Made by a program: the position numbers and the translations under genes
Origin: Candidatus Poribacteria bacterium
GTDB taxonomy: Bacteria > Poribacteria > WGA-4E > WGA-3G
NCBI GenBank assembly: GCA_022825665.1
Contig: JAJDWI010000149.1
Location: 26,700 to 90,699, forward strand
Length of the DNA stretch: 64,000 nucleotides
Direction: 5' to 3'
Shown: in pieces, positions 4,666 to 63,099 of the stretch
How positions within the stretch are numbered: position 1 is the stretch's first letter
How the letters are laid out: every line of letters begins with the position of its first letter
Notes under the pieces: model-generated
The model's database searches: none
Told to the model about the DNA's origin: nothing
The model's input: the letters and a program-made list of their open reading frames with translations, nothing else

Positions 4666-5958
4666 TTATTTTTTTAGAACTAAAATCCAATCGGTGTTGA
4701 TACGTTCTTCTCTTGGTACCTTAATGAAATGTTTGATAATCTCTGAACCGAAATAAGTTTCTACTTCAAATCCAATTTCTTCAGCAATCTGCATGAGGTA
4801 TTTCCAACTTTCAAACAACTGTCCACGTATACGATTATTGCCAACAACTACAATATATCTGCAGCCATTACGCAAAACCTTGTAGACTTCCGCAAGATTC
4901 TCACGCATATCTTTAAGATATTTATAGGCAATGTATGCACGTCTCGGGTCTATTTCATAGATATTAGTGATAACTTTGTCCGCCTCTTGCACACCTATTT
5001 CATGTTTTTGCTTGTAATCGCGAGCAGAGACACTTTCCGTCCCGACATTTTGTTTTTTCAAAGCAGTTAACGAATCCTGTGCAAATCCAAGCCAATACAT
5101 CTCTAATTGATGAGTCCTCGGATAATCCACTGCGTTGACATACGGTGGAGAAGTTACAGCGAGATCAAAATGACCTTCTTTGTACACAATATTCCTTGCA
5201 TCCATATCATCTGGAAACTCAACGTTAATATCCAATGGGTAGTTTTGGGAAAACGCAACCATTTTAGGAACTTTGGTTAGAACTGTTTTAGCAAAGCGAT
5301 TTAGTGCATCAGTAGGTTTTACCAATTTGTTCAATTTTTTCCGAATTACTGTCCGAGTACAATTATCATCTGCATTAGATACAGAACGGATAATTGATGA
5401 AAGACAGACTTTAAAGAAATCTTTAATGTCATCATTGACCATAAGTTGTTGAATTTTATTTCTTAGGTAGGTTAACTCAAGAAGTATCTCTTTGTTAAAC
5501 CAATTGTCTCTATAGGGAAAATTCGGGAAGTCAGTATCGTTAACCTGTGTGGAATCATAATTTAAAATAGACTCCAGAAGTGTTTTTTGTGATGCTTTGA
5601 GTGCTTTCTCTGACAAAGGGGTAACCTTTACTTTAGAAATGAATCGTGAAAACGGGTCAACATCTATCCCAACAGAGTTCCGTTTTGAGAGAAGTGCTTC
5701 AACATTTGTGGTACCGCTTCCAGCAAATGGATCCAAGATCACATCACGCTCCTGAGAGAACCGTTTGATGAGCCAACGTGGTAATTCGGGGAAAAATTTA
5801 GCAGGGTATTTGTGAATTCCGTGAGTCAAAAAACTCTGGTCGTGACTGATAAAAAGAAACCTATCTCCATTTTTTATTGGAAGATCAACAGGAATCTCAC
5901 CGTCAACTTGAATAATTCTTTCACCAAAGTCGTTAATGATTTCAGTTACTTTGGACAT
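4666..5958 (-). CDS. orphan DNA methyltransferase (SPPY type)
   Basis: An S-adenosylmethionine-dependent DNA methyltransferase of 430 residues. The SAM-binding motif DPFAGSGTTN comes first (about residue 78) and the catalytic motif TSPPYVNAVDYPR second (about 268). SPPY is usual for N4-cytosine or some N6-adenine enzymes. The central part is likely DNA recognition. No restriction endonuclease gene lies next to it, so it may be a solitary regulatory or housekeeping methylase. It is unrelated in motif order to the second methyltransferase at 29477-30346. Target sequence and base are unknown. Confidence 0.85.
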   Translation of the reverse strand: MSKVTEIINDFGERIIQVDGEIPVDLPIKNGDRFLFISHDQSFLTHGIHKYPAKFFPELPRWLIKRFSQERDVILDPFAGSGTTNVEALLSKRNSVGIDVDPFSRFISKVKVTPLSEKALKASQKTLLESILNYDSTQVNDTDFPNFPYRDNWFNKEILLELTYLRNKIQQLMVNDDIKDFFKVCLSSIIRSVSNADDNCTRTVIRKKLNKLVKPTDALNRFAKTVLTKVPKMVAFSQNYPLDINVEFPDDMDARNIVYKEGHFDLAVTSPPYVNAVDYPRTHQLEMYWLGFAQDSLTALKKQNVGTESVSARDYKQKHEIGVQEADKVITNIYEIDPRRAYIAYKYLKDMRENLAEVYKVLRNGCRYIVVVGNNRIRGQLFESWKYLMQIAEEIGFEVETYFGSEIIKHFIKVPREERINTDWILVLKK

Positions 5959-55061: not shown

Positions 55062-56507
55062 TTAGAAAATTCCAGTAATTACCTCACCTTTTACCAACTC
55101 ACGCGGTTGATCTAAGTGATTCATCACGATAGTATGTGGATCAATACCAAGCGTATGGTAAATAGTAGCGAGGATATCCCGCGGATGTACCGGTTTTTCA
55201 AGTGGTGTTGAACCTGTGGCATCAGACTTACCGTAAACCTGACCACCTTTGACACCAGCACCAGCAATTAGACCGGTGTAGCAATAGGGCCAATGGTCGC
55301 GTCCATCAGGTGCGTTTCCGTTTCCAGATGTGCTAATACCCATCCGCGGTGAACGACCAAATTCACCGATAGCGAGTACAAGCGTTTCCTCTAACATGCC
55401 CTTCTGATCTAAGTCTTCAAGCAGTGAAGAAACCGCACTATCTAATTTCGGACAGTGAAGGTTTTTCAGTGGACCGAAGTTGGCTGCGTGGGTATCCCAT
55501 GCCGTAGTATTTGGGTTACCGTTAGCAACAGAGGGCCAGTTCACCTGAACGAATCGAGTGCCAGCTTCTACCAAACGTCGTGCAAGTAGTGCACTCTGTC
55601 CAAATGTATGACGACCATATTTGTCACGCATCTCATCAGTTTCCTGAGACAAATCAAACGCGTTGCGTGCCTTTTGAGACAAAATGAGATTATACGCCTT
55701 TTCATAGTATTCGTTCAGCGCAAAGGAATCTGCCACTTTGTCAATTTCTGGCATATTGGCGTTAATTGTTTCAAGGAGCGTCTTCCGACGCTGCAATCGC
55801 TTCGGTGGCACTTCTGGTCTGAGTTTCAAATCATCAAGGTTAATTTCCGTATTAGGATCTTGGAAGAGAAAATATGGGTCATAAGCCCTACCAAGGAATC
55901 CTGCATTTCCACCTTTACCAATGATACCACTCTCCTGCATCGGACGCGGTAGTTGGACTGCTGCTAACATCGGTTCATCTGGTGGTCTGAACTTAGAGAT
56001 ATGTGCTGCAGCGTTTGGATGATCAGCAGGGGATGGTGGGTCAAGTTGTCCGGAAGGAGCAACCTTGTCCGGTGTTTCGCCAGTAACCATCTGATACATC
56101 GCAGCAGTGTGATTGAATAGTCCTGCCGGTGTATAACTTACTGAACGGATAAGACATGCTTTATCCATCTGTTGTGCCAAACGCGGCATTGTTTCTGACA
56201 ACTGAATGCCCGGAACATTTGTCGGAATTGGATTAAATTCCCCACGTATGTTTGATGGTGCATCCGGTTTTGGATCCCAGATATCAATGTGACTCGGTCC
56301 ACCTTGCAAGAAAAGAAGAATGACAGAATTGGCTTTGCCCCAACCATTTAGAGGCTTCGCGGGGTCAACTGTCGTGCTTGCCTTGGCTTGGAGTGACAAT
56401 ACTTGCGGAAGGCTAATGCCCAGCATCGCCGCGCCACCCACGCGGAGAAATTCTCTACGTGAGAACCCATCACATAATCTTCCGGGGGCTTGTGGTAACG
56501 ATATCAT
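55062..56507 (-). CDS. DUF1501 protein (Tat-exported sulfatase-like)
   Basis: About 481 residues. A twin-arginine signal lies in SRREFLRVGGAAMLG near residue 18. The body is a DUF1501 domain of the alkaline-phosphatase/sulfatase superfamily, with LFLQGGPSHIDIWDPKP near 65, GEFGRSPRMG near 370 and GRDHWPYCYTGLIAGAGVKGG near 395, which hold the likely metal-binding Asp/His. DUF1501 genes pair with DUF1549/DUF1553 genes in planctomycete-type genomes, and here that partner is just upstream on the same strand. ATG 56507 has GGAGG upstream. The reaction is unknown. Confidence 0.9.
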   Translation of the reverse strand: MISLPQAPGRLCDGFSRREFLRVGGAAMLGISLPQVLSLQAKASTTVDPAKPLNGWGKANSVILLFLQGGPSHIDIWDPKPDAPSNIRGEFNPIPTNVPGIQLSETMPRLAQQMDKACLIRSVSYTPAGLFNHTAAMYQMVTGETPDKVAPSGQLDPPSPADHPNAAAHISKFRPPDEPMLAAVQLPRPMQESGIIGKGGNAGFLGRAYDPYFLFQDPNTEINLDDLKLRPEVPPKRLQRRKTLLETINANMPEIDKVADSFALNEYYEKAYNLILSQKARNAFDLSQETDEMRDKYGRHTFGQSALLARRLVEAGTRFVQVNWPSVANGNPNTTAWDTHAANFGPLKNLHCPKLDSAVSSLLEDLDQKGMLEETLVLAIGEFGRSPRMGISTSGNGNAPDGRDHWPYCYTGLIAGAGVKGGQVYGKSDATGSTPLEKPVHPRDILATIYHTLGIDPHTIVMNHLDQPRELVKGEVITGIF

Positions 56508-56571
56508 CAATTATTTCCTCCATATTGTTTGTGCTAACTTTCCTTTTTGTTGCACATAAATAGGTATAGGC

Positions 56572-59049
56572 TTATCGGTTGAATAAGAACGCGGGACTGT
56601 TAAGTAATGCCCACATCAAATCTTGCGCGCCTTCTTCCTTAGATTCAGCACTAGCAAGGTGTTCAACCGCTATCTTATATTCGTTTTCCATCGGTAACCG
56701 AGCAAATGTTGCAAGATATAACTCTTCAATAAGAGCACGATCTTCCGTGTTCTCTTTGATAAGTTTGGCAATTCGTCCTTTTGGATCTATAATTGCGTTG
56801 GCAACTGTCGGTCCGTTGATTAGGTTCATTGCATGAGCAAGGCTTACTTCAGTTGTTCGTTCACATTCACATGAACTTTCACGTTCGGGTCGTCCGAACA
56901 ATTTCAAAAAACCATCATCCTTCACTTTGCTGTCGGGTAATTGGACAGCACGGAAGTCTTTTGGCACACCTTGAAACTTCGGTTGGCTTCCCGTCGCAAT
57001 ACCAATCGCATCTAACAACTGTTCAGCTGTCAAACGACGTGCAATTCCATGTGAGAAATTAATCGTGTCTTCTTTGTTCCACTTGTTAGTTTTGATACTC
57101 TGTTGATAGGTGTGAGAACGAGTAATCGTTTTCATGATATGTTTAATATCAAAATCGCTTTCAATAAAGTCTTTGGTCAGGGCATCAAGTAGTTCCGGAT
57201 TGCTGGGTGGGTTACTTGTCCGAATATCATCAACAGGTTCAATGATACCACGTCCCATAAAGTAACTCCAGATTCGGTTCACACCCGCTTTTGCGAACAT
57301 CGGATTCTCAGAGGATGTAAGCCATTCCGCAAGAGATTCACGCTTATTGGTAATATCTTGTTTTGTTTCACCAAATGGTACAGATGGCGGAACAACGGCT
57401 AATGTCCTCGGATGTTTAACAGGTGTAGGACTGAAACTTGCATAAACCACCTCTTCACCCGGTAATCGACCATTTTTCAACTTAACATCAGAGAAAAACG
57501 CTCCGAATTCATAATATTGATTTTGTGTCCATACCTCAAATGGATGGTCATGACACTTGTTACATGAGAAGCGAACACCAAGGAACAGTTGTGTTGTGTT
57601 TTCCACAGCAGCAGTATATTCACGAGAAACACGGAAATAATTAGCCGCAGGGTTTTGATACGCACTGCCTGTTGCCGTAATCAAGTCATGAACAAATTTA
57701 TCGTAAGGACGATTATCGGCAATTGATTCGTGTATCCACTGTTGGAAAAGCCACATACCGCGTTCACCGAGGAATTTACGGTTTGATTGTAACAGATCTC
57801 CCCATTTATGTGTCCAATGATCAACATACTCGGTTGTTTCAACCAAATGATCGATCAGTTTTTCGCGTTTTTCCTTTGATGGTGTTTCATCCATAAGGAA
57901 ACTACGCACCTTTTCAGGTGTTGGTGGGAGTCCTGTCATATCAAAGTAAATCCTTCGAACAAACTCTTCATCTGTGCAGAGTTCAGAAGGTAATATCTTT
58001 AATCGTTTCAGTTTATTATGGACATGCGTATCAATGTAGTTGTATTCAGGAGTTTCAACCCATTCATATCCACTACGATCACCCATAACGATGATACCGT
58101 TTGTGCTATACGCGCCTTCATAGCGGGTTAGTATAGCAGTTTCTCCACGACGTTCCGCAGTAACAACTCCATCATCAGTTACCTTAGCAACTTCATTCAT
58201 ACTACTGGTGAATTTGGCTTCACGTGTTACATCGCGTGTTGTGCCATCAGGATAATGGGCTATTACCAACAATTGTTGTTTTGTACCAGGTATGGATAAT
58301 TCAGCAGAATCTGGAAATACTTCCAACCTTTCAACCCGTTGTGTTGTTTCAACATCTGAGGCAACACCTTCACTAATCCACTGATGAATTAGATTGTAGT
58401 CACGCGAATCTGGCACAATCACTTGACCACCCTTATGTGGAACTTCAGATGTCGGTTTAAGAAGCATAAGACTCTGTTCGGGAAACGCACGATTAAACCG
58501 TCGACCAGTTATATCTTCAATCAAGAGTTCGTAGTCGAAATCTGGATCATAACCGCGTAGCGACAGTTTAAAACCGTTTTTGCCTTTTGCACCACCATGG
58601 CATGTACCATTATTACAACCCGCATGGCTTAGAATCGGCATAACATCACGCACAAAACTCACAGGTGGGGCATCCATACTTTTCACTGCTACTGGTAGTT
58701 CAGTTGTGAGCCCCTTGACAGTTACTGTGATCTTTGTTGTGCCAACTGAATTCGGAAAAATGTAGCCATCTTCATGTAATTTAACACCTTCTGAAGCAGG
58801 TTTTAACGCTGCCCAAGATGTTACATCCACCCATTTTCCATCTTTCGTTTGTCCCGATACAAGTACACGACGACCATCTCGCGCATGCTCTAATGTCAAC
58901 GACTCAGGATGAGTCTTCAATGCTTTGATTTCGGGTACTTCAACACTCGGAATAGTTTCCTCCATCTGACTCCAACTTATCTGCTGAAACATTAAACAGC
59001 ATGAGAGTACGACAAGGAGTGTAACAACCAAGTTAAAACTGAGTTTCAC
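56572..59049 (-). CDS. PSD1-type cytochrome c / DUF1549-DUF1553 protein
   Basis: About 825 residues with a signal peptide. Near residue 145 is the motif CNNGTCHGG, a C-x4-C-H variant of the planctomycete cytochrome c domain. A Big-type Ig domain comes near 235 (DSAELSIPGTKQQLLVIAHYPDGT). The DUF1549 part has LCTDEEFVRRIYFDMTGLPPTPEKV near 355, a second C-x-x-C-H (CNKCHDHPFEVWTQNQYYEFGAFF) near 500, and the DUF1553 part ends the protein. GTG 59049 is chosen because GGAGG lies 5 bp upstream; ATG 59061 would contain that site. It forms a pair with the DUF1501 gene. Confidence 0.88.
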   Translation of the reverse strand: MKLSFNLVVTLLVVLSCCLMFQQISWSQMEETIPSVEVPEIKALKTHPESLTLEHARDGRRVLVSGQTKDGKWVDVTSWAALKPASEGVKLHEDGYIFPNSVGTTKITVTVKGLTTELPVAVKSMDAPPVSFVRDVMPILSHAGCNNGTCHGGAKGKNGFKLSLRGYDPDFDYELLIEDITGRRFNRAFPEQSLMLLKPTSEVPHKGGQVIVPDSRDYNLIHQWISEGVASDVETTQRVERLEVFPDSAELSIPGTKQQLLVIAHYPDGTTRDVTREAKFTSSMNEVAKVTDDGVVTAERRGETAILTRYEGAYSTNGIIVMGDRSGYEWVETPEYNYIDTHVHNKLKRLKILPSELCTDEEFVRRIYFDMTGLPPTPEKVRSFLMDETPSKEKREKLIDHLVETTEYVDHWTHKWGDLLQSNRKFLGERGMWLFQQWIHESIADNRPYDKFVHDLITATGSAYQNPAANYFRVSREYTAAVENTTQLFLGVRFSCNKCHDHPFEVWTQNQYYEFGAFFSDVKLKNGRLPGEEVVYASFSPTPVKHPRTLAVVPPSVPFGETKQDITNKRESLAEWLTSSENPMFAKAGVNRIWSYFMGRGIIEPVDDIRTSNPPSNPELLDALTKDFIESDFDIKHIMKTITRSHTYQQSIKTNKWNKEDTINFSHGIARRLTAEQLLDAIGIATGSQPKFQGVPKDFRAVQLPDSKVKDDGFLKLFGRPERESSCECERTTEVSLAHAMNLINGPTVANAIIDPKGRIAKLIKENTEDRALIEELYLATFARLPMENEYKIAVEHLASAESKEEGAQDLMWALLNSPAFLFNR

Positions 59050-59128
59050 ATTAACCTCCATAAATGGTATGAAACTTTATCATAGCGGTAGATTCCGCTG
59101 TATAATATATTAACTGTTATTTTCCTTA

Positions 59129-59947
59129 TTACCTCTGGTTTTTCAATTCTCCCCACACGATTGGTAATTTACCTTGTGAGGAAACATCAGCAAATTCTGA
59201 TTCACTTGCTAACCAATTAATTATGTTTTCAGTCACTTGTTCTAACTGGTCTATACTTTTGTTGTTAGTATGGTAATTCGGAAGCCGCCAATTCATATTA
59301 AACACTTTGCCGTCTCCAGCTTCCCAATATCCAAACGCAGCAATTCTGTCAGCGTAATTGGTGCCACCTTCCCAAGCATGAGCAAGGGTGGTAAAATTCT
59401 TAGCGAGACTGTCGAAATAGTCTCCACTATTAGGAAATCCCGTTGAATTTAATTGAACCCAATCATTTAGTTTAGGAGGATTACCGTCTACATTCTCAAG
59501 TCCTTCAACCAGACCGAGATCAAGCGTTTCATTTAACACGATAATGCCAACATTACTTCCATCGTCAAGTACAGGTCCAAAAGCGCGCGGTTGGGCATTT
59601 TCAAGTCCCATGGGTGTCGCATAACTGAATGCCTTACCAGTTAACAAGATTGCACCACCACTTTCGGCATAATCCACCAGGGCATCAATTTCTGCACCTG
59701 ACAAAGGACCTGGATCACTATCTCCTTCATTCCACCACACAACAGCATATTGCTTTAACTTTGCACTATTTATATCTTTTTTAGCCAATTGCGTTGTATT
59801 AAACGTATCTTTAGCAAACTCCAATGCTGGTTTTGTAAATGGACCGTTATCTCCAAGAAAGAGATAACCGACTTCTATTGAAGCATTTCCTATAGTTAAA
59901 CCACATAACAAAATTAAAGTCAAGTAAAAGACAAACTTTCTAAACAT
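59129..59947 (-). CDS. exported GATase1-like (ThuA/DUF4960-like) protein of unknown function
   Basis: About 272 residues with a signal peptide (1-22). The fold looks like a class I glutamine-amidotransferase/ThuA domain: YAVVWWNEGDSDPGPLSGAEIDALVDYAESGGAILLTGKAF (about 65-108). It has no Cys-His-Glu triad I can assign. A later part (YADRIAAFGYWEAGDGKVFNMNWRLPNYH) describes a bound or trehalose-like site region but no motif is certain. ATG 59947 has AAGGAG upstream and an earlier ATG at 59962 contains it. Confidence 0.65.
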   Translation of the reverse strand: MFRKFVFYLTLILLCGLTIGNASIEVGYLFLGDNGPFTKPALEFAKDTFNTTQLAKKDINSAKLKQYAVVWWNEGDSDPGPLSGAEIDALVDYAESGGAILLTGKAFSYATPMGLENAQPRAFGPVLDDGSNVGIIVLNETLDLGLVEGLENVDGNPPKLNDWVQLNSTGFPNSGDYFDSLAKNFTTLAHAWEGGTNYADRIAAFGYWEAGDGKVFNMNWRLPNYHTNNKSIDQLEQVTENIINWLASESEFADVSSQGKLPIVWGELKNQR

Positions 59948-60035
59948 TTTTTTCTCCTTCAATCAATGAAGTAGTCATAAATATTATTTATCTATCATTC
60001 TTGTGAAATCAACACATAATTTTTTCTTGACTCTA

Positions 60036-61490
60036 TCACATCGGTCCAACCCGTTGTGGACCTTTATCCATTGCGAACATTGAGGAATCAAAACTTCTTT
60101 TTATCAAATCAAATTTTATATCCTGCTTATCACAATTATACCATAGATTGTTGAATTCACCGAGATCATCAACCAAATCGTAGAGTTCTCCTTCTTCGTG
60201 TCCGTGGTAAACTACTAACTTATAACGTTCATCTCTGTACATTGTTGCGAAAGTATGGTCACGTTGATCAAGGGCATCATAATACTCACAACGGACAAAG
60301 TCACGATGATGATTTGCATCAGATTCACCTCGGAGGATAGATAATAGCGAACGTCCATGCATCTGCTCAGGAATAGGTAAACCTGCTAATTCCAATAGAG
60401 TTGGTGTTTTATCAACAAGTTCAACAAGTGCTTCGCTTTTTAAACCGTTTTCAAAATGTCCTTGCCACGAGAAAATCAAAGGCACTCTGACCAATCCTTC
60501 GTAAAACCGACATCCTTTTTGTATAAGTCCATGGTCTCCTAACATTTCCCCGTGATCGCTTGTGAAGATGATAACTGTATTCTCACGTTGTCCTGTCTCA
60601 TCCAATACTTCCAAAATCCGACCTAACTGATCATCTATCAGTTTAATCATCGCATAATAGGCAGCTGTCAGTGTCTTTGCATCCCTTTGCCCTACCAATT
60701 CAGGTTTTGTCTTGCCTCGCGGTGACTGTGGTATAATAGGATTTCGTATATCTAATTCATCAGGTGTACGAACTTTTGACTGAAAATCAATTTTACTTAG
60801 TCTATTTTGTTGTTCTAAATCACTCTCCTTGAAATGAGGTTCTGGCAGGTCTTCTGGATTAAACTGTTCCCTATATGACTGAGGTGGATTGAACGGAGGA
60901 TGCGGGTCATATATGTTAACACTTGCAAGCCATGGAGCATCTCGTTCCTCACAGATAAACTCTATCGTCTTCTCTGTACACCAAGTCGTTTGATGTAATT
61001 CTGCTGGAACACCTTCAGGATTTTGGGTTAACTCGCGAAGTATATAGCCTTTTGAGCGAACCCAATCAGCGTAATCGTGTCCCTCCTCCCAGTCATCTCG
61101 TGGTGCATGGCTATATTGCCAATATCGGTAACCATCATCTGCACGCGGTTCTATTCTACGAAAAGCACTCGCAAGATGCAATTTACCTATCAAACCACAA
61201 TCGTATCCGTTATCTGCAAGCGTACGTGTGACAAGTGGAAATGTATCCGGAAAATAATCGTTACCATTGCCATTTACATGAACTGCACTCGGATACATAC
61301 CTGTCAAAAAACTTGCACGGCTCGGAGTACAAATTGGACTTTGACAATACGCATGCGTAAATGCCACACCATCAGCAACCAAACTATCAATGTTAGGTGT
61401 TGATACGTATGGATTACCCAATGATCCTATTGTATCGTAACGCTGTTGATCAGTACATATCCATAAGATATTTGGTGTTTCAACAGACAT
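60036..61490 (-). CDS. sulfatase (type I, formylglycine-dependent)
   Basis: 484 residues without a clear signal peptide. The formylglycine motif CTPSRASFLTG is near residue 57 (Cys-x-Pro-x-Arg), so a maturase (AtsB-like or FGE) must act on it. The metal-binding ICTDQQ near 11 and TSDHGEMLGDHGLIQKG near 308 are intact. It resembles sulfatases of choline or iduronate type in having YPSAVHVNGNGN after the active site. Sulfated polysaccharides of algae or sponges are likely substrates. It starts 10 bp after the stop of the selenoprotein gene upstream. Confidence 0.92.
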   Translation of the reverse strand: MSVETPNILWICTDQQRYDTIGSLGNPYVSTPNIDSLVADGVAFTHAYCQSPICTPSRASFLTGMYPSAVHVNGNGNDYFPDTFPLVTRTLADNGYDCGLIGKLHLASAFRRIEPRADDGYRYWQYSHAPRDDWEEGHDYADWVRSKGYILRELTQNPEGVPAELHQTTWCTEKTIEFICEERDAPWLASVNIYDPHPPFNPPQSYREQFNPEDLPEPHFKESDLEQQNRLSKIDFQSKVRTPDELDIRNPIIPQSPRGKTKPELVGQRDAKTLTAAYYAMIKLIDDQLGRILEVLDETGQRENTVIIFTSDHGEMLGDHGLIQKGCRFYEGLVRVPLIFSWQGHFENGLKSEALVELVDKTPTLLELAGLPIPEQMHGRSLLSILRGESDANHHRDFVRCEYYDALDQRDHTFATMYRDERYKLVVYHGHEEGELYDLVDDLGEFNNLWYNCDKQDIKFDLIKRSFDSSMFAMDKGPQRVGPM

Positions 61491-61500
61491 ATTTAGTTTA

Positions 61501-63099
61501 TTACTTAGCAGTAGCTGTAAATCCTGCAGTCTTAATTACATTCGTAAGTTCATCAACCGAAACACTATCCTTCCGAACCTTGATGACCGCTTGATCTGGT
61601 AGAGAAACTTCAGCACTAATCACATTTTGATGTTTTGTAAGTGCAGCCTGCACTTTTTCAACACAAACCCCTCATGTCATACCCGATACAGCTAAAGTAA
61701 GTTCTTCACTCGCATCAGTTTCTATTGGGACAGACATAAAAATATGTAGTTGTTTGCCTGAGTTAGCGTCAAACACACGGATCTTACCATCAAATCCACC
61801 CGTAGCAAGTTTTGTTCCATCAGGATGAAACGCAAGAGCAAATATACCTACGGTATCACCTTGCATAGATAATAGACGTTTCCCGTCTGATACGTTATAT
61901 ATACGTGCTTCGCCCGCGGAACTTCCAACAGCAAATTTACTGCCATCTGCAGAAAAGGCAACAGCATCTATTGAACCCGCTTGTGCTTCATAAGCTCGAA
62001 TTAGGTTGAAATCTGTATTCCCTACATCTCTGCGAGTTTCACGGAACATTTTGTATAGCCGTGGGATTCTGTCTTCCCCGACACTCAATACTTGGTCTGC
62101 CTTCGGATGTCGCGCAATTGCATTGATTTCACCATAGCCTTTGTTACTGGAGTTCACATCATCAACAAACGAACCTGTATCTACCTCCACCAACTTAAGT
62201 GCTGTGTCACGACTACAACTGACAAAATGTGATCCATCCGTAGAAAAAACCGTACCAAAAACCCAATCACTGTGATTGTCGAATTTCACAAGTTCCTTTT
62301 CATCAGCAATAGAAACAACTCGCACAGTATGATCAGATGAACCGAATGCAACTCGTGTGGAATCTGGTGAGAATGAGAGTCCATAGATAGTATCAAAAGT
62401 AGATCGTATTGCTTTGACAAGTTTGTTTGTAGTTGTGTCCCATAACTGAACTTCACCGAATTGTGCAGGAGATCCTCCAGCAATACCGAGTATTTTGCCA
62501 CCATCTGCAAAAACAATTGATTGAATGCGACGCGCATTACCTACCAATCGTGCTTTGATTTCCAAAGTAACAGAATCATACAACAATACTTCACTAACGC
62601 CTGATACAGCAAGTGTAGTACCATCAGGAGAAAATGCCATCGCAGAAACTACCGGTGGCACAGTATATTTCGGATAGTTTCCCTCTCCAACATCGTTAGT
62701 TTTCTCAGGTGTATCGTCTTTTGCCCCTTCAAGAATCCAACGTTTGAATAGGTCTATCTCATCTATCGTAAGTGGTTCTTGGTTCTGGGGCATTGCGGGA
62801 GGGTCGCCAGAAATGAGCTCAATGATGAGACTATCATCAGGTTTTCCAGGGATAATCGCTTCCCCTGCCATACCCCCACGCTTGAGTTCATCGTAGGATG
62901 TTACAATCAGATCCCCATTTGGATCACCGGGATGATGGCATCCTTGACAACTCCGTTTGAGCAACGGAAGAATCTGTTTATAATAACTCACGGGTTCTTC
63001 TTTTCCATGATTGTCTGCTACCACAAGTGGACTCCACAAGACAAAGCAGAATAGAATAATCCCAAAATACTTCATTAACCTTAATCTTGATATATCCAT
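61501..63099 (-). CDS. predicted selenoprotein: cytochrome c (PSCyt1)-WD40-HMA domain with Sec at UGA 61672-61674
   Basis: Secreted. A signal peptide (about 1-28) is followed by a planctomycete-type cytochrome c domain (heme motif CQGCH near 52, distal PAMPQN near 105), then a WD40 propeller (about 145-455). The conventional frame stops at TGA 61674-61672 after SGMT. The same frame runs on for 56 codons to TAA and encodes a complete heavy-metal-associated domain. The TGA falls where the first Cys of GMTCxxC belongs (GMT-U-G-V-C), and a hairpin of bacterial-SECIS type follows at 61634-61667. Read through, the protein has 532 residues with Sec at about 476. ATG 63099 has GGAGGA 11 bp upstream. 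If the UGA were a true stop, the product would lose its metal site. Confidence 0.8.
61634..61667 (-). promoter_or_regulatory. predicted bacterial SECIS element
   Basis: Counting from the base after the UGA, a perfect 7-bp stem AAGTGCA/TGCACTT begins 16 nt downstream and closes a 3-nt loop GGC whose first base is G, as bacterial SECIS elements require. A lower stem TTTGT/ACAAA is separated on the 5' side by a 7-nt bulge. The UGA-to-loop distance of 23 nt is within the accepted 16-37 nt range. Confidence 0.75.

What the first reader, a model, noticed from the sequence alone, without database searches (positions are those of the whole stretch)
61501..63099. Probable new selenoprotein: UGA replaces the first Cys of an HMA metal motif in a secreted cytochrome c/WD40 protein
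The frame continues for 56 codons past TGA 61674-61672 and encodes a full HMA domain, so the UGA is not at a natural domain end. It lies exactly at GMT-U-G-V-C in place of GMTCxxC. A hairpin with a G-starting loop follows at the distance required for a bacterial SECIS. A secreted Sec-containing metal-binding domain joined to a heme domain and a beta-propeller would be a novel architecture.
Basis: partly seen in the sequence, partly recalled or inferred. Interest (0 to 1): 0.93.

Follow-up and report, generated by a model that had tools for sequence, protein, structure and literature searches.

The report
New Poribacteria selenoprotein with metal-binding tail
A Poribacteria gene carries an in-frame UGA that is likely read as selenocysteine rather than as stop, adding a predicted soft-metal-binding tail to a probably secreted heme and beta-propeller protein; the related genes we read that have this tail carry the same UGA or a cysteine codon there, and the database proteins listed for us all end just before it.

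Summary
The window lies in a Candidatus Poribacteria genome that holds selA, selB, selC (anticodon TCA) and a selD that has an in-frame TGA itself. In 63 distinct orthologous sequences with the tail, the codon is TGA in 60, TGT in 2, TGC in 1, and never TAA or TAG. The tail evolves as protein (pN/pS 0.25). A 7-bp hairpin with a GGN loop, 23 nt after the UGA, is frozen at five codons in 60 of 60 TGA genes; the GGN loop motif is missing from all 3 Cys orthologues. The same hairpin, with paired changes, follows UGA in small lipoprotein-like Sec-HMA genes of these genomes, two of them with three UGAs per frame. The Verrucomicrobial and Acidobacterial relatives fetched lack the tail. Sec in HMA-type proteins is already known (MerP, P-type ATPase, NF041115, NF045683). 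New here are the fusion to a PSCyt1 cytochrome c plus WD40 propeller and the Poribacterial family. All 120 listed database relatives end at GMT, right before the UGA. Soft-metal binding is the likeliest function; the metal is unknown and nothing was tested at the bench.

The parts
61501..63099 (-). Whole selenoprotein gene: 532 codons with one in-frame TGA, stop TAA
   Evidence: orthologues in 63 of 72 genomes of the order at E<=1e-100
63013..63099 (-). Predicted signal peptide, residues 1-29 (hydrophobic stretch read by eye; no signal program was run)
   Evidence: sequence; helix 3-22 in the model
62935..62949 (-). CQGCH c-heme motif, residues 51-55, in PSCyt1 (PF07635)
   Evidence: PF07635 40.4 bits, cut-off 22; C51, C54, H55 invariant in 29 of 29 aligned sequences
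62791..62793 (-). Met103, candidate second heme ligand (inferred)
   Evidence: invariant in 29 of 29
61735..62643 (-). WD40 beta-propeller, residues 153-455
   Evidence: PF00400 102.6 bits, cut-off 27; model matches seven-bladed propellers, e.g. 7bie_A
61507..61710 (-). HMA domain, residues 464-531, predicted beta-alpha-beta-beta-alpha-beta
   Evidence: PF00403 41.1 bits; model pLDDT 81-92 by block of ten over 461-532
61672..61674 (-). UGA, predicted selenocysteine 476, in place of the first Cys of GMTCxxC
   Evidence: TGA in 60, TGT in 2, TGC in 1 of 63 distinct sequences
61663..61665 (-). Cys479, predicted partner ligand
   Evidence: invariant in 29 of 29
61639..61655 (-). Predicted bacterial SECIS hairpin, AAGUGCA-GGC-UGCACUU, loop 61646-61648
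   Evidence: model R1
60036..61490 (-). Next gene: sulfatase (PF00884), starts 10 nt after the TAA
   Evidence: 169.5 bits; homologue in 47 of 59 fetched loci
59129..59962 (-). Downstream 277-aa protein, no Pfam match at E<=0.01
   Evidence: homologue in 45 of 59 loci
56572..59061 (-). Downstream PSCyt2/PSD1 (DUF1549/DUF1553) protein
   Evidence: homologue in 49 of 59 loci
55062..56510 (-). Downstream DUF1501 protein
   Evidence: 351.5 bits; homologue in 17 of 59 loci

Best explanation
The gene at 61501-63099 (minus strand) has an in-frame UGA at codon 476 that is predicted to be read as selenocysteine by the SelA/B/C/D system encoded in this genome, giving a likely secreted c-heme and WD40 protein whose C-terminal HMA domain would bind a soft metal through Sec476 and Cys479. 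Shown by sequence: the frame, the UGA, Cys codons in three orthologues, selection on the tail, the frozen hairpin, and the four sel genes. Inferred: SelB binds the hairpin and inserts Sec; the protein is exported; heme attaches at CQGCH; U476 and C479 hold a thiophilic ion (such as Cu(I) or Hg(II)) more tightly than CxxC would. The propeller with its c-heme motif is shared with Verrucomicrobial and Acidobacterial proteins that lack the tail. In a domain tree the tail HMA groups with small Sec-HMA lipoprotein-like proteins of the same genomes, so a gain by fusion is likely but not shown.
For: sel genes: selA 527 bits, selB 354 bits over cut-off 242, tRNA-Sec 78 bits next to selB on the same contig with anticodon TCA by ARAGORN; selD 362 bits with its own in-frame TGA (translated). 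Codon census 60 TGA, 2 TGT, 1 TGC, 0 TAA/TAG in 63 distinct sequences; 57 of 58 same-family genomes have the gene, each match with one TGA. pN/pS of the tail 0.25 against 0.29 just upstream in 57 genes, 0.22 against 0.18 in the 17 closest. Codons +6 to +10: pS 0.000; GTGCAGGNTGCAC in 60 of 60; by the same rule 1 of 44 eligible upstream codons and 0 of 33 in the later tail are as invariant. The hairpin fits the published bSECIS rules of loop, stem, G position and spacing. 3 of 7 pairs have changes on both sides (6 cells) in 43 sequences chosen from 72; 0 of 500 shuffles reach the covariation score and 2 of 500 the pair count. All 120 listed database relatives end in GMT, 119 of them aligned up to residue 475. 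Metal site: PF00403; PDB relatives of the tail include Cu-ATPases, MerP, CopZ and mercuric reductase.
Against: No direct evidence of Sec or of metal. The 20-nt hairpin is at -7.4 kcal/mol, just above the published -7.5 limit, though nucleotides +3 to +45 fold at -10.5 with the hairpin. The MFE of 60 nt holds the hairpin in 50 of 60 genes, not all, and a 65-nt own fold does not. The Rfam scan around the UGA gave only one chance snoRNA match. Two of three Cys orthologues can still form 6 of 7 pairs, so the stem is lost in one only. Covariation rests on 6 cells, the number of further pair types is not unusual (150 of 500 shuffles as high), and shuffles do not remove relatedness. Five genomes with hits of model R1 lack full selA (G004, G007, G010, G021, G048); G007, G021 and G048 have full selB, G004 and G010 (81% and 73% complete) do not; G041, with the TGA gene and selA, has no full selB and is 80% complete. 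Gaps in draft assemblies probably explain this. MerT is missing from the own genome and from 57 of 59, so no classical mer partner. The neighbours (sulfatase, PSD1, DUF1501) say nothing about metals.
Confidence: 0.82

Rival explanations
1. The UGA is an ordinary stop and the protein ends at residue 475; the downstream HMA frame is a relic or a separately started peptide.
For: All 120 listed database relatives end at GMT just before the UGA; the relatives fetched from Verrucomicrobia and Acidobacteria have no HMA and end near residue 460; GTG at codon +7 could in principle start translation.
Against: 60 of 63 TGA, no TAA or TAG, tail under purifying selection, Cys codons in 3, frozen hairpin at the SECIS distance, full sel set. 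A start at GTG +7 would lose the metal motif and the first strand. Database lengths show only where gene callers stop.
Confidence: 0.03
2. It is a selenoprotein, but Sec476-Cys479 works as a redox pair (a selenenylsulfide that exchanges electrons with the heme) instead of a metal site.
For: Most prokaryotic selenoprotein families in the GOS study were homologues of thiol oxidoreductases or had thioredoxin-like folds (PMC2398784, passages); a c-heme motif is in the same chain.
Against: The domain is HMA, and its PDB relatives are Cu and Hg carriers. Closeness of heme and HMA was not assessed; the heme part of the model is poor.
Confidence: 0.25
3. UGA is decoded as Trp or another residue by a variant code or a suppressor.
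For: Only that the frame is open.
Against: 9 of 39 window frames of 200 or more residues end in TGA (this one included) and TGG is common in them; the aligned residue elsewhere is Cys; a tRNA-Sec is present.
Confidence: 0.01
4. A sequencing or assembly error made the TGA.
For: The genomes are mostly draft assemblies.
Against: Same TGA in 57 of 58 family genomes, five of them single-contig (G009, G023, G079, G080, G081).
Confidence: 0.005

Closest known systems
Sec-containing MerP, putative mercuric transport protein, and cation-transporting ATPase E1-E2 (UxxC), Table 2 of PMC2398784 (seen in passages)
   Same: Selenoproteins of metal-transport families, the ATPase with UxxC as here
   Different: No cytochrome or WD40 part named there; own tail scores 33.9 bits against MerP TIGR02052 (cut-off 92.55) and the own genome has no MerT
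NF041115 UxxU metal-binding (seleno)protein (linked with the putative mercuric reductase in PMC13188914, passage)
   Same: Sec-bearing HMA-like domain; the best NCBIfam hit of P0001 (37 bits)
   Different: UxxU, two Sec, 74-position small protein; cut-off 95 not reached
NF045683 MerT/CopZ fusion-like heavy metal transport selenoprotein
   Same: By its name a Sec-HMA fused to another domain; weak match to the two own-genome lipoprotein-like proteins (44.6 and 26.8 bits)
   Different: Transporter fusion; no match to the window protein at E<=0.01; cut-off 375
ExtKL multiheme cytochrome and tetrathionate-reductase-family octaheme cytochrome selenoproteins (table in PMC13188914)
   Same: Sec and c-heme in one family
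   Different: Multiheme; no HMA or WD40 named in the passages seen
PSCyt1-WD40 proteins of Verrucomicrobia and Acidobacteria
   Same: Homologous cytochrome and propeller, 40-47% identity
   Different: No HMA, no UGA

Membership tests
Bacterial selenoprotein gene | In-frame UGA with conservation on both sides | tested here: met
Bacterial selenoprotein gene | Homologues with Cys at the UGA | tested here: met
   2 TGT and 1 TGC of 63
Bacterial selenoprotein gene | bSECIS: 3-9 nt loop, 4-16 bp stem, G in the first two loop positions, 16-37 nt from UGA | tested here: met
   3-nt loop GGC, 7 bp, 23 nt; rules
Bacterial selenoprotein gene | bSECIS energy at or below -7.5 kcal/mol | tested here: inconclusive
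   -7.4 for the bare hairpin; -10.5 for +3..+45 with the hairpin; competing 65-nt fold
Bacterial selenoprotein gene | selA, selB, selC, selD in the genome | tested here: met
Bacterial selenoprotein gene | Selenium detected in the protein | not testable with these tools
   needs 75Se or mass spectrometry
HMA domain (PF00403) | Profile over cut-off and predicted beta-alpha-beta-beta-alpha-beta fold | tested here: met
   41.1 against 24.8 bits; model
HMA domain (PF00403) | Binds a metal ion | not testable with these tools
   no bench data
MerP (TIGR02052) | Profile cut-off and a mer operon | tested here: not met
   33.9 against 92.55; no MerT in the own genome
NF041115 UxxU selenoprotein | Profile cut-off and UxxU | tested here: not met
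   37-40.9 against 95; motif is UxxC
NF045683 MerT/CopZ selenoprotein | Profile cut-off | tested here: not met
   window protein not listed at E<=0.01
PSCyt1 cytochrome c | PF07635 and CxxCH | tested here: met
   40.4 against 22 bits; invariant in 29 of 29
WD40 propeller | PF00400 repeats and propeller fold | tested here: met

The most novel reading that the evidence does not exclude
The UGA is a selenium switch: with selenium the ribosome makes the Sec-HMA form and then reaches the sulfatase start 10 nt behind its stop; without selenium it makes the 475-residue form, which resembles the complete tail-less Verrucomicrobial protein, and the downstream genes are less coupled. One gene would thus yield a metal-binding and a plain propeller-cytochrome according to selenium supply, as part of a Poribacterial family of Sec-HMA proteins with up to three Sec per chain.
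Probability: 0.15. Interest if true: 0.8.

Novelty: new variant of a known kind. Interest (0 to 1): 0.66.

Why it matters
It adds a selenoprotein architecture (c-heme, beta-propeller, Sec-HMA) that our searches of an open-licence library and the review tables seen in part did not show. It indicates that Poribacteria, known from sponges among other places (recalled; partly), hold a family of Sec-HMA proteins; for the one in the window, all 120 database relatives listed are cut at the UGA. Because HMA domains are metal sites and not thioredoxin folds, the family offers a clean test of why an organism pays for selenium at a soft-metal site. The TGA/TGC/TGT set within one orthologous family allows a direct comparison of Sec and Cys.

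Tried and rejected
Rfam scan around the UGA (501 bases): only a chance snoRNA match, E 0.68. Direction of the Sec/Cys change: the tree of 32 cytochrome-propeller rows leaves Cys f4, tail-less f5, Sec f3 and Sec f1 in an open fork, so which state came first is unresolved (25 of the 63 tail-bearing rows were chosen, and 4 of the 11 tail-less rows asked for dropped out by a filter). HMA domain tree, 80 of 132 collected domains, 69 columns: all tail and lipoprotein-like domains fall together (100/97) apart from the 25 Cys HMA domains used, but branches are long, the program warns of long branches meeting, and the Cys domains all come from the relatives searched. Mer operon: not supported in this genome. 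Other long continuations past stop codons in the window (32437, 31501, 28710, 18143): next cistrons, not selenoproteins. Foldseek on the whole model lists propellers in the rows shown and says nothing of the HMA part. One search had an indexing fault in my script; its pairing numbers are void and one search replaces them. One search stopped on a script error and one search replaces it. Three of the seven references (L034, L062, L063) were off register and are not used. One search was an incomplete submission.

Full report
What is there. On the minus strand, 63099 to 61501, a frame of 532 codons is interrupted once by TGA at 61674-61672, codon 476. Before it lie a hydrophobic N-terminus (by eye), a PSCyt1 cytochrome c part with CQGCH (PF07635, 40.4 bits) and a WD40 propeller (PF00400, 102.6 bits; structural matches to seven-bladed propellers). 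After it the frame completes an HMA domain (PF00403, 41.1 bits) whose GMTCxxC motif reads GMT-UGA-GVC. The AlphaFold2 model from 29 sequences has mean pLDDT 81.1 and shows strand 464-472, helix 477-489, strands 493-499 and 503-509, helix 515-524, strand 528-531, the HMA order, with residue 476 just before the first helix. The heme part is poorly modelled (block means 39 and 56 over residues 51-70).

Organism and machinery. The named relatives that match at 52% identity or more are all labelled Poribacteria. The own genome (4.53 Mb, 95% complete) has selA (527 bits), selB (354 bits), tRNA-Sec 60 bases after selB on the same contig (78 bits; ARAGORN anticodon TCA) and selD (362 bits) with an in-frame TGA near its N-terminus.

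Codon census. After removing identical DNA, 127 matches gave 88 distinct rows. 63 carry the HMA tail: TGA 60, TGT 2, TGC 1, no TAA or TAG. The 63 include the window's own gene and two partial copies (L071; second copy in L072). The remaining 25 rows have no tail; 24 of these were read to their stop and have only 0-19 further residues. All 63 tails run open for 56-63 codons. In the order-level search of 72 genomes, 63 have the protein at E<=1e-100; 57 of 58 family-f1 genomes do, each match with one TGA, G007 being the exception. The listing shows G036 without a stop because its match ends at residue 461; read separately (L069) it has the TGA tail. The three Cys genes are in family f4, genomes G044, G045 and G048. 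All three have full selB; G044 and G045 also have full selA, while G048 has only weak selA matches. All three have other UGA-bearing HMA frames. So the swap to Cys does not mark loss of Sec decoding.

Selection. Over 57 TGA genes, pN/pS is 0.29 in the 56 codons before the UGA and 0.25 in the 55 after it; in the 17 closest genes 0.18 and 0.22. The tail is under selection as protein.

SECIS. Codons +6 to +10 spell AAA or AGA, GTG, CAG, GNT, GCA. GTG, CAG and GCA are invariant in 60 of 60, although they make up only 20%, 32% and 41% of the codons for their residues upstream. Synonymous divergence over these five codons is 0.000, against 0.57-0.67 in the neighbouring blocks of the same 57 genes. 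59 of 60 have AGTGCAGGNTGCACT; the exception, L060, keeps GTGCAGGNTGCAC. The stem is 7 bp with loop GGN, 23 nt after the UGA, within the published bSECIS limits (PMC13188914, figure legend seen as a passage), except that the bare hairpin at -7.4 kcal/mol just misses -7.5. The 60-nt MFE contains it in 50 of 60 genes; a 22-nt piece in 60 of 60. The GGN loop motif is absent from all three Cys genes; pairing is lost in L064, while L062 and L063 can still form 6 of 7 pairs. These may be remnants of a former SECIS, as PMC1794560 showed for two other genes (one figure legend seen), but the tree does not settle the direction.

A family of such domains. The HMA search over 59 genomes and a covariance model from 26 tail and 17 lipoprotein-type hairpins (43 of 72 distinct ones) show small HMA frames with UGA in the same place. 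That they are lipoproteins is read by eye from their N-termini. Model hits occur in 50 of 59 genomes, three in the own genome (the sequences used to build it match by construction). Their hairpins differ by paired changes: GUGCA/UGCAC, GUGCG/CGCAC, GUACA/UGUAC; three of seven pairs change on both sides, 96.3% of cells pair, 0 of 500 shuffles reach the covariation score, but the count of further pair types is ordinary (150 of 500). L188 and L196 carry three UGA HMA units and one Cys unit in one reading frame. In the domain tree the tail HMAs and these HMAs group together, apart from 25 Cys HMA domains (short alignment, long branches).

Sel association. Full selA (over 470 bits) is in 50 of 59 genomes, one with an internal TAA. 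Model R1 hits are also in 50 of 59, not the same set: G004, G007, G010, G021 and G048 have hits without full selA, of which G007, G021 and G048 have full selB, and G004 and G010 are 81% and 73% complete. G049, G053, G055, G056 and G057 have selA without hits; G050, G052, G054 and G058 have neither. G041 has the TGA gene and selA but no full selB (80% complete).

Function. Residues C51, C54, H55, M103, position 476 (Sec or Cys) and C479 are invariant in 29 of 29 aligned proteins. Sequence relatives of the tail in the PDB are copper ATPase domains, MerP, CopZ and mercuric reductase. I therefore favour a soft-metal site in which selenium is one ligand. The metal cannot be named: MerT is absent from the own genome and found in only 2 of 59 (one over cut-off), neither with a tail-bearing orthologue. 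Conserved neighbours: sulfatase in 47, the 277-aa protein in 45, PSCyt2/PSD1 in 49, DUF1501 in 17 of 59 loci, of which 15 are shorter than 12 kb and may not reach them. They resemble Planctomycete-type PSCyt operons (recalled) and do not fix the role.

Comparison with what is known. Sec in metal-transport and HMA-type proteins is on record: MerP, putative mercuric transport protein and a UxxC cation ATPase in GOS data (PMC2398784, passages); a mercuric reductase UxxU (PMC9312934, passages); NF041115 and NF045683. Sec with c-heme is on record for multiheme proteins (PMC13188914, passages). Papers holding Poribacteria and selenocysteine: 2, of which PMC5649159 (one passage) reports SelA and SelB as common in sponge symbiont bins; the other, PMC9999580, was seen in the listing only. 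Poribacteria with selenoprotein: 0. Selenoprotein with WD40, bacteria and metagenome-assembled: 0. Selenoprotein with heavy metal-associated domain and bacteria: 0. The deep-Sep paper PMC12013277 has no occurrence of MerP, heavy metal, WD40, Poribacteria or mercur in its main text. Only open-licence papers were searched and no supplements, so absence there is weak evidence.

Annotation. The 120 best of 5642 database matches have at most 494 residues and cover at most 89% of the 532; all 120 end in GMT, the residues right before the UGA.

Verdict. A real selenoprotein gene by sequence criteria (my estimate 0.96), with a metal role likely (0.65) and a new architecture on a known type of Sec domain.

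Noticed in passing
L229:4648-5031 and 5123-5491 (own genome, contig C162): Two adjacent small HMA lipoprotein-like frames, each with one in-frame UGA at GMT-U-xxC and hit by the hairpin model; followed by a 400-residue protein without Pfam or NCBIfam match at E<=0.01.
   Followed up: partly
L188:2254-2742 and L196:1308-1805: Three UGA-bearing HMA units plus one Cys HMA unit in a single frame: candidate bacterial proteins with three Sec, each with its own hairpin.
   Followed up: partly
L192 minus strand, UGA at 1447-1445 (G007): A UGA-bearing HMA unit whose frame runs on for 438 codons; by eye the rest resembles the 400-residue neighbour seen in L229 and L230. Another possible Sec-HMA fusion, in the only family-f1 genome searched without the window gene.
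   Followed up: no
L011 (own genome selD): selD has an in-frame TGA (CAG-U-ASK), so probably a Sec-containing selenophosphate synthetase.
   Followed up: partly
L072:4983-5555: A second, partial copy of the gene (propeller end plus HMA tail) just downstream of the full one, UGA and hairpin kept.
   Followed up: no
window 61490-61503 and loci: The sulfatase starts 10 nt after the stop here; in the 39 of 63 genes where the script found it, the distance is 21 nt in 22 and 10 nt in 5, so translation of the two genes may be coupled.
   Followed up: no
L235:3120-3401 and L237: Divergent UGA-bearing HMA frames with MDUGGC, on a long branch in the domain tree.
   Followed up: no
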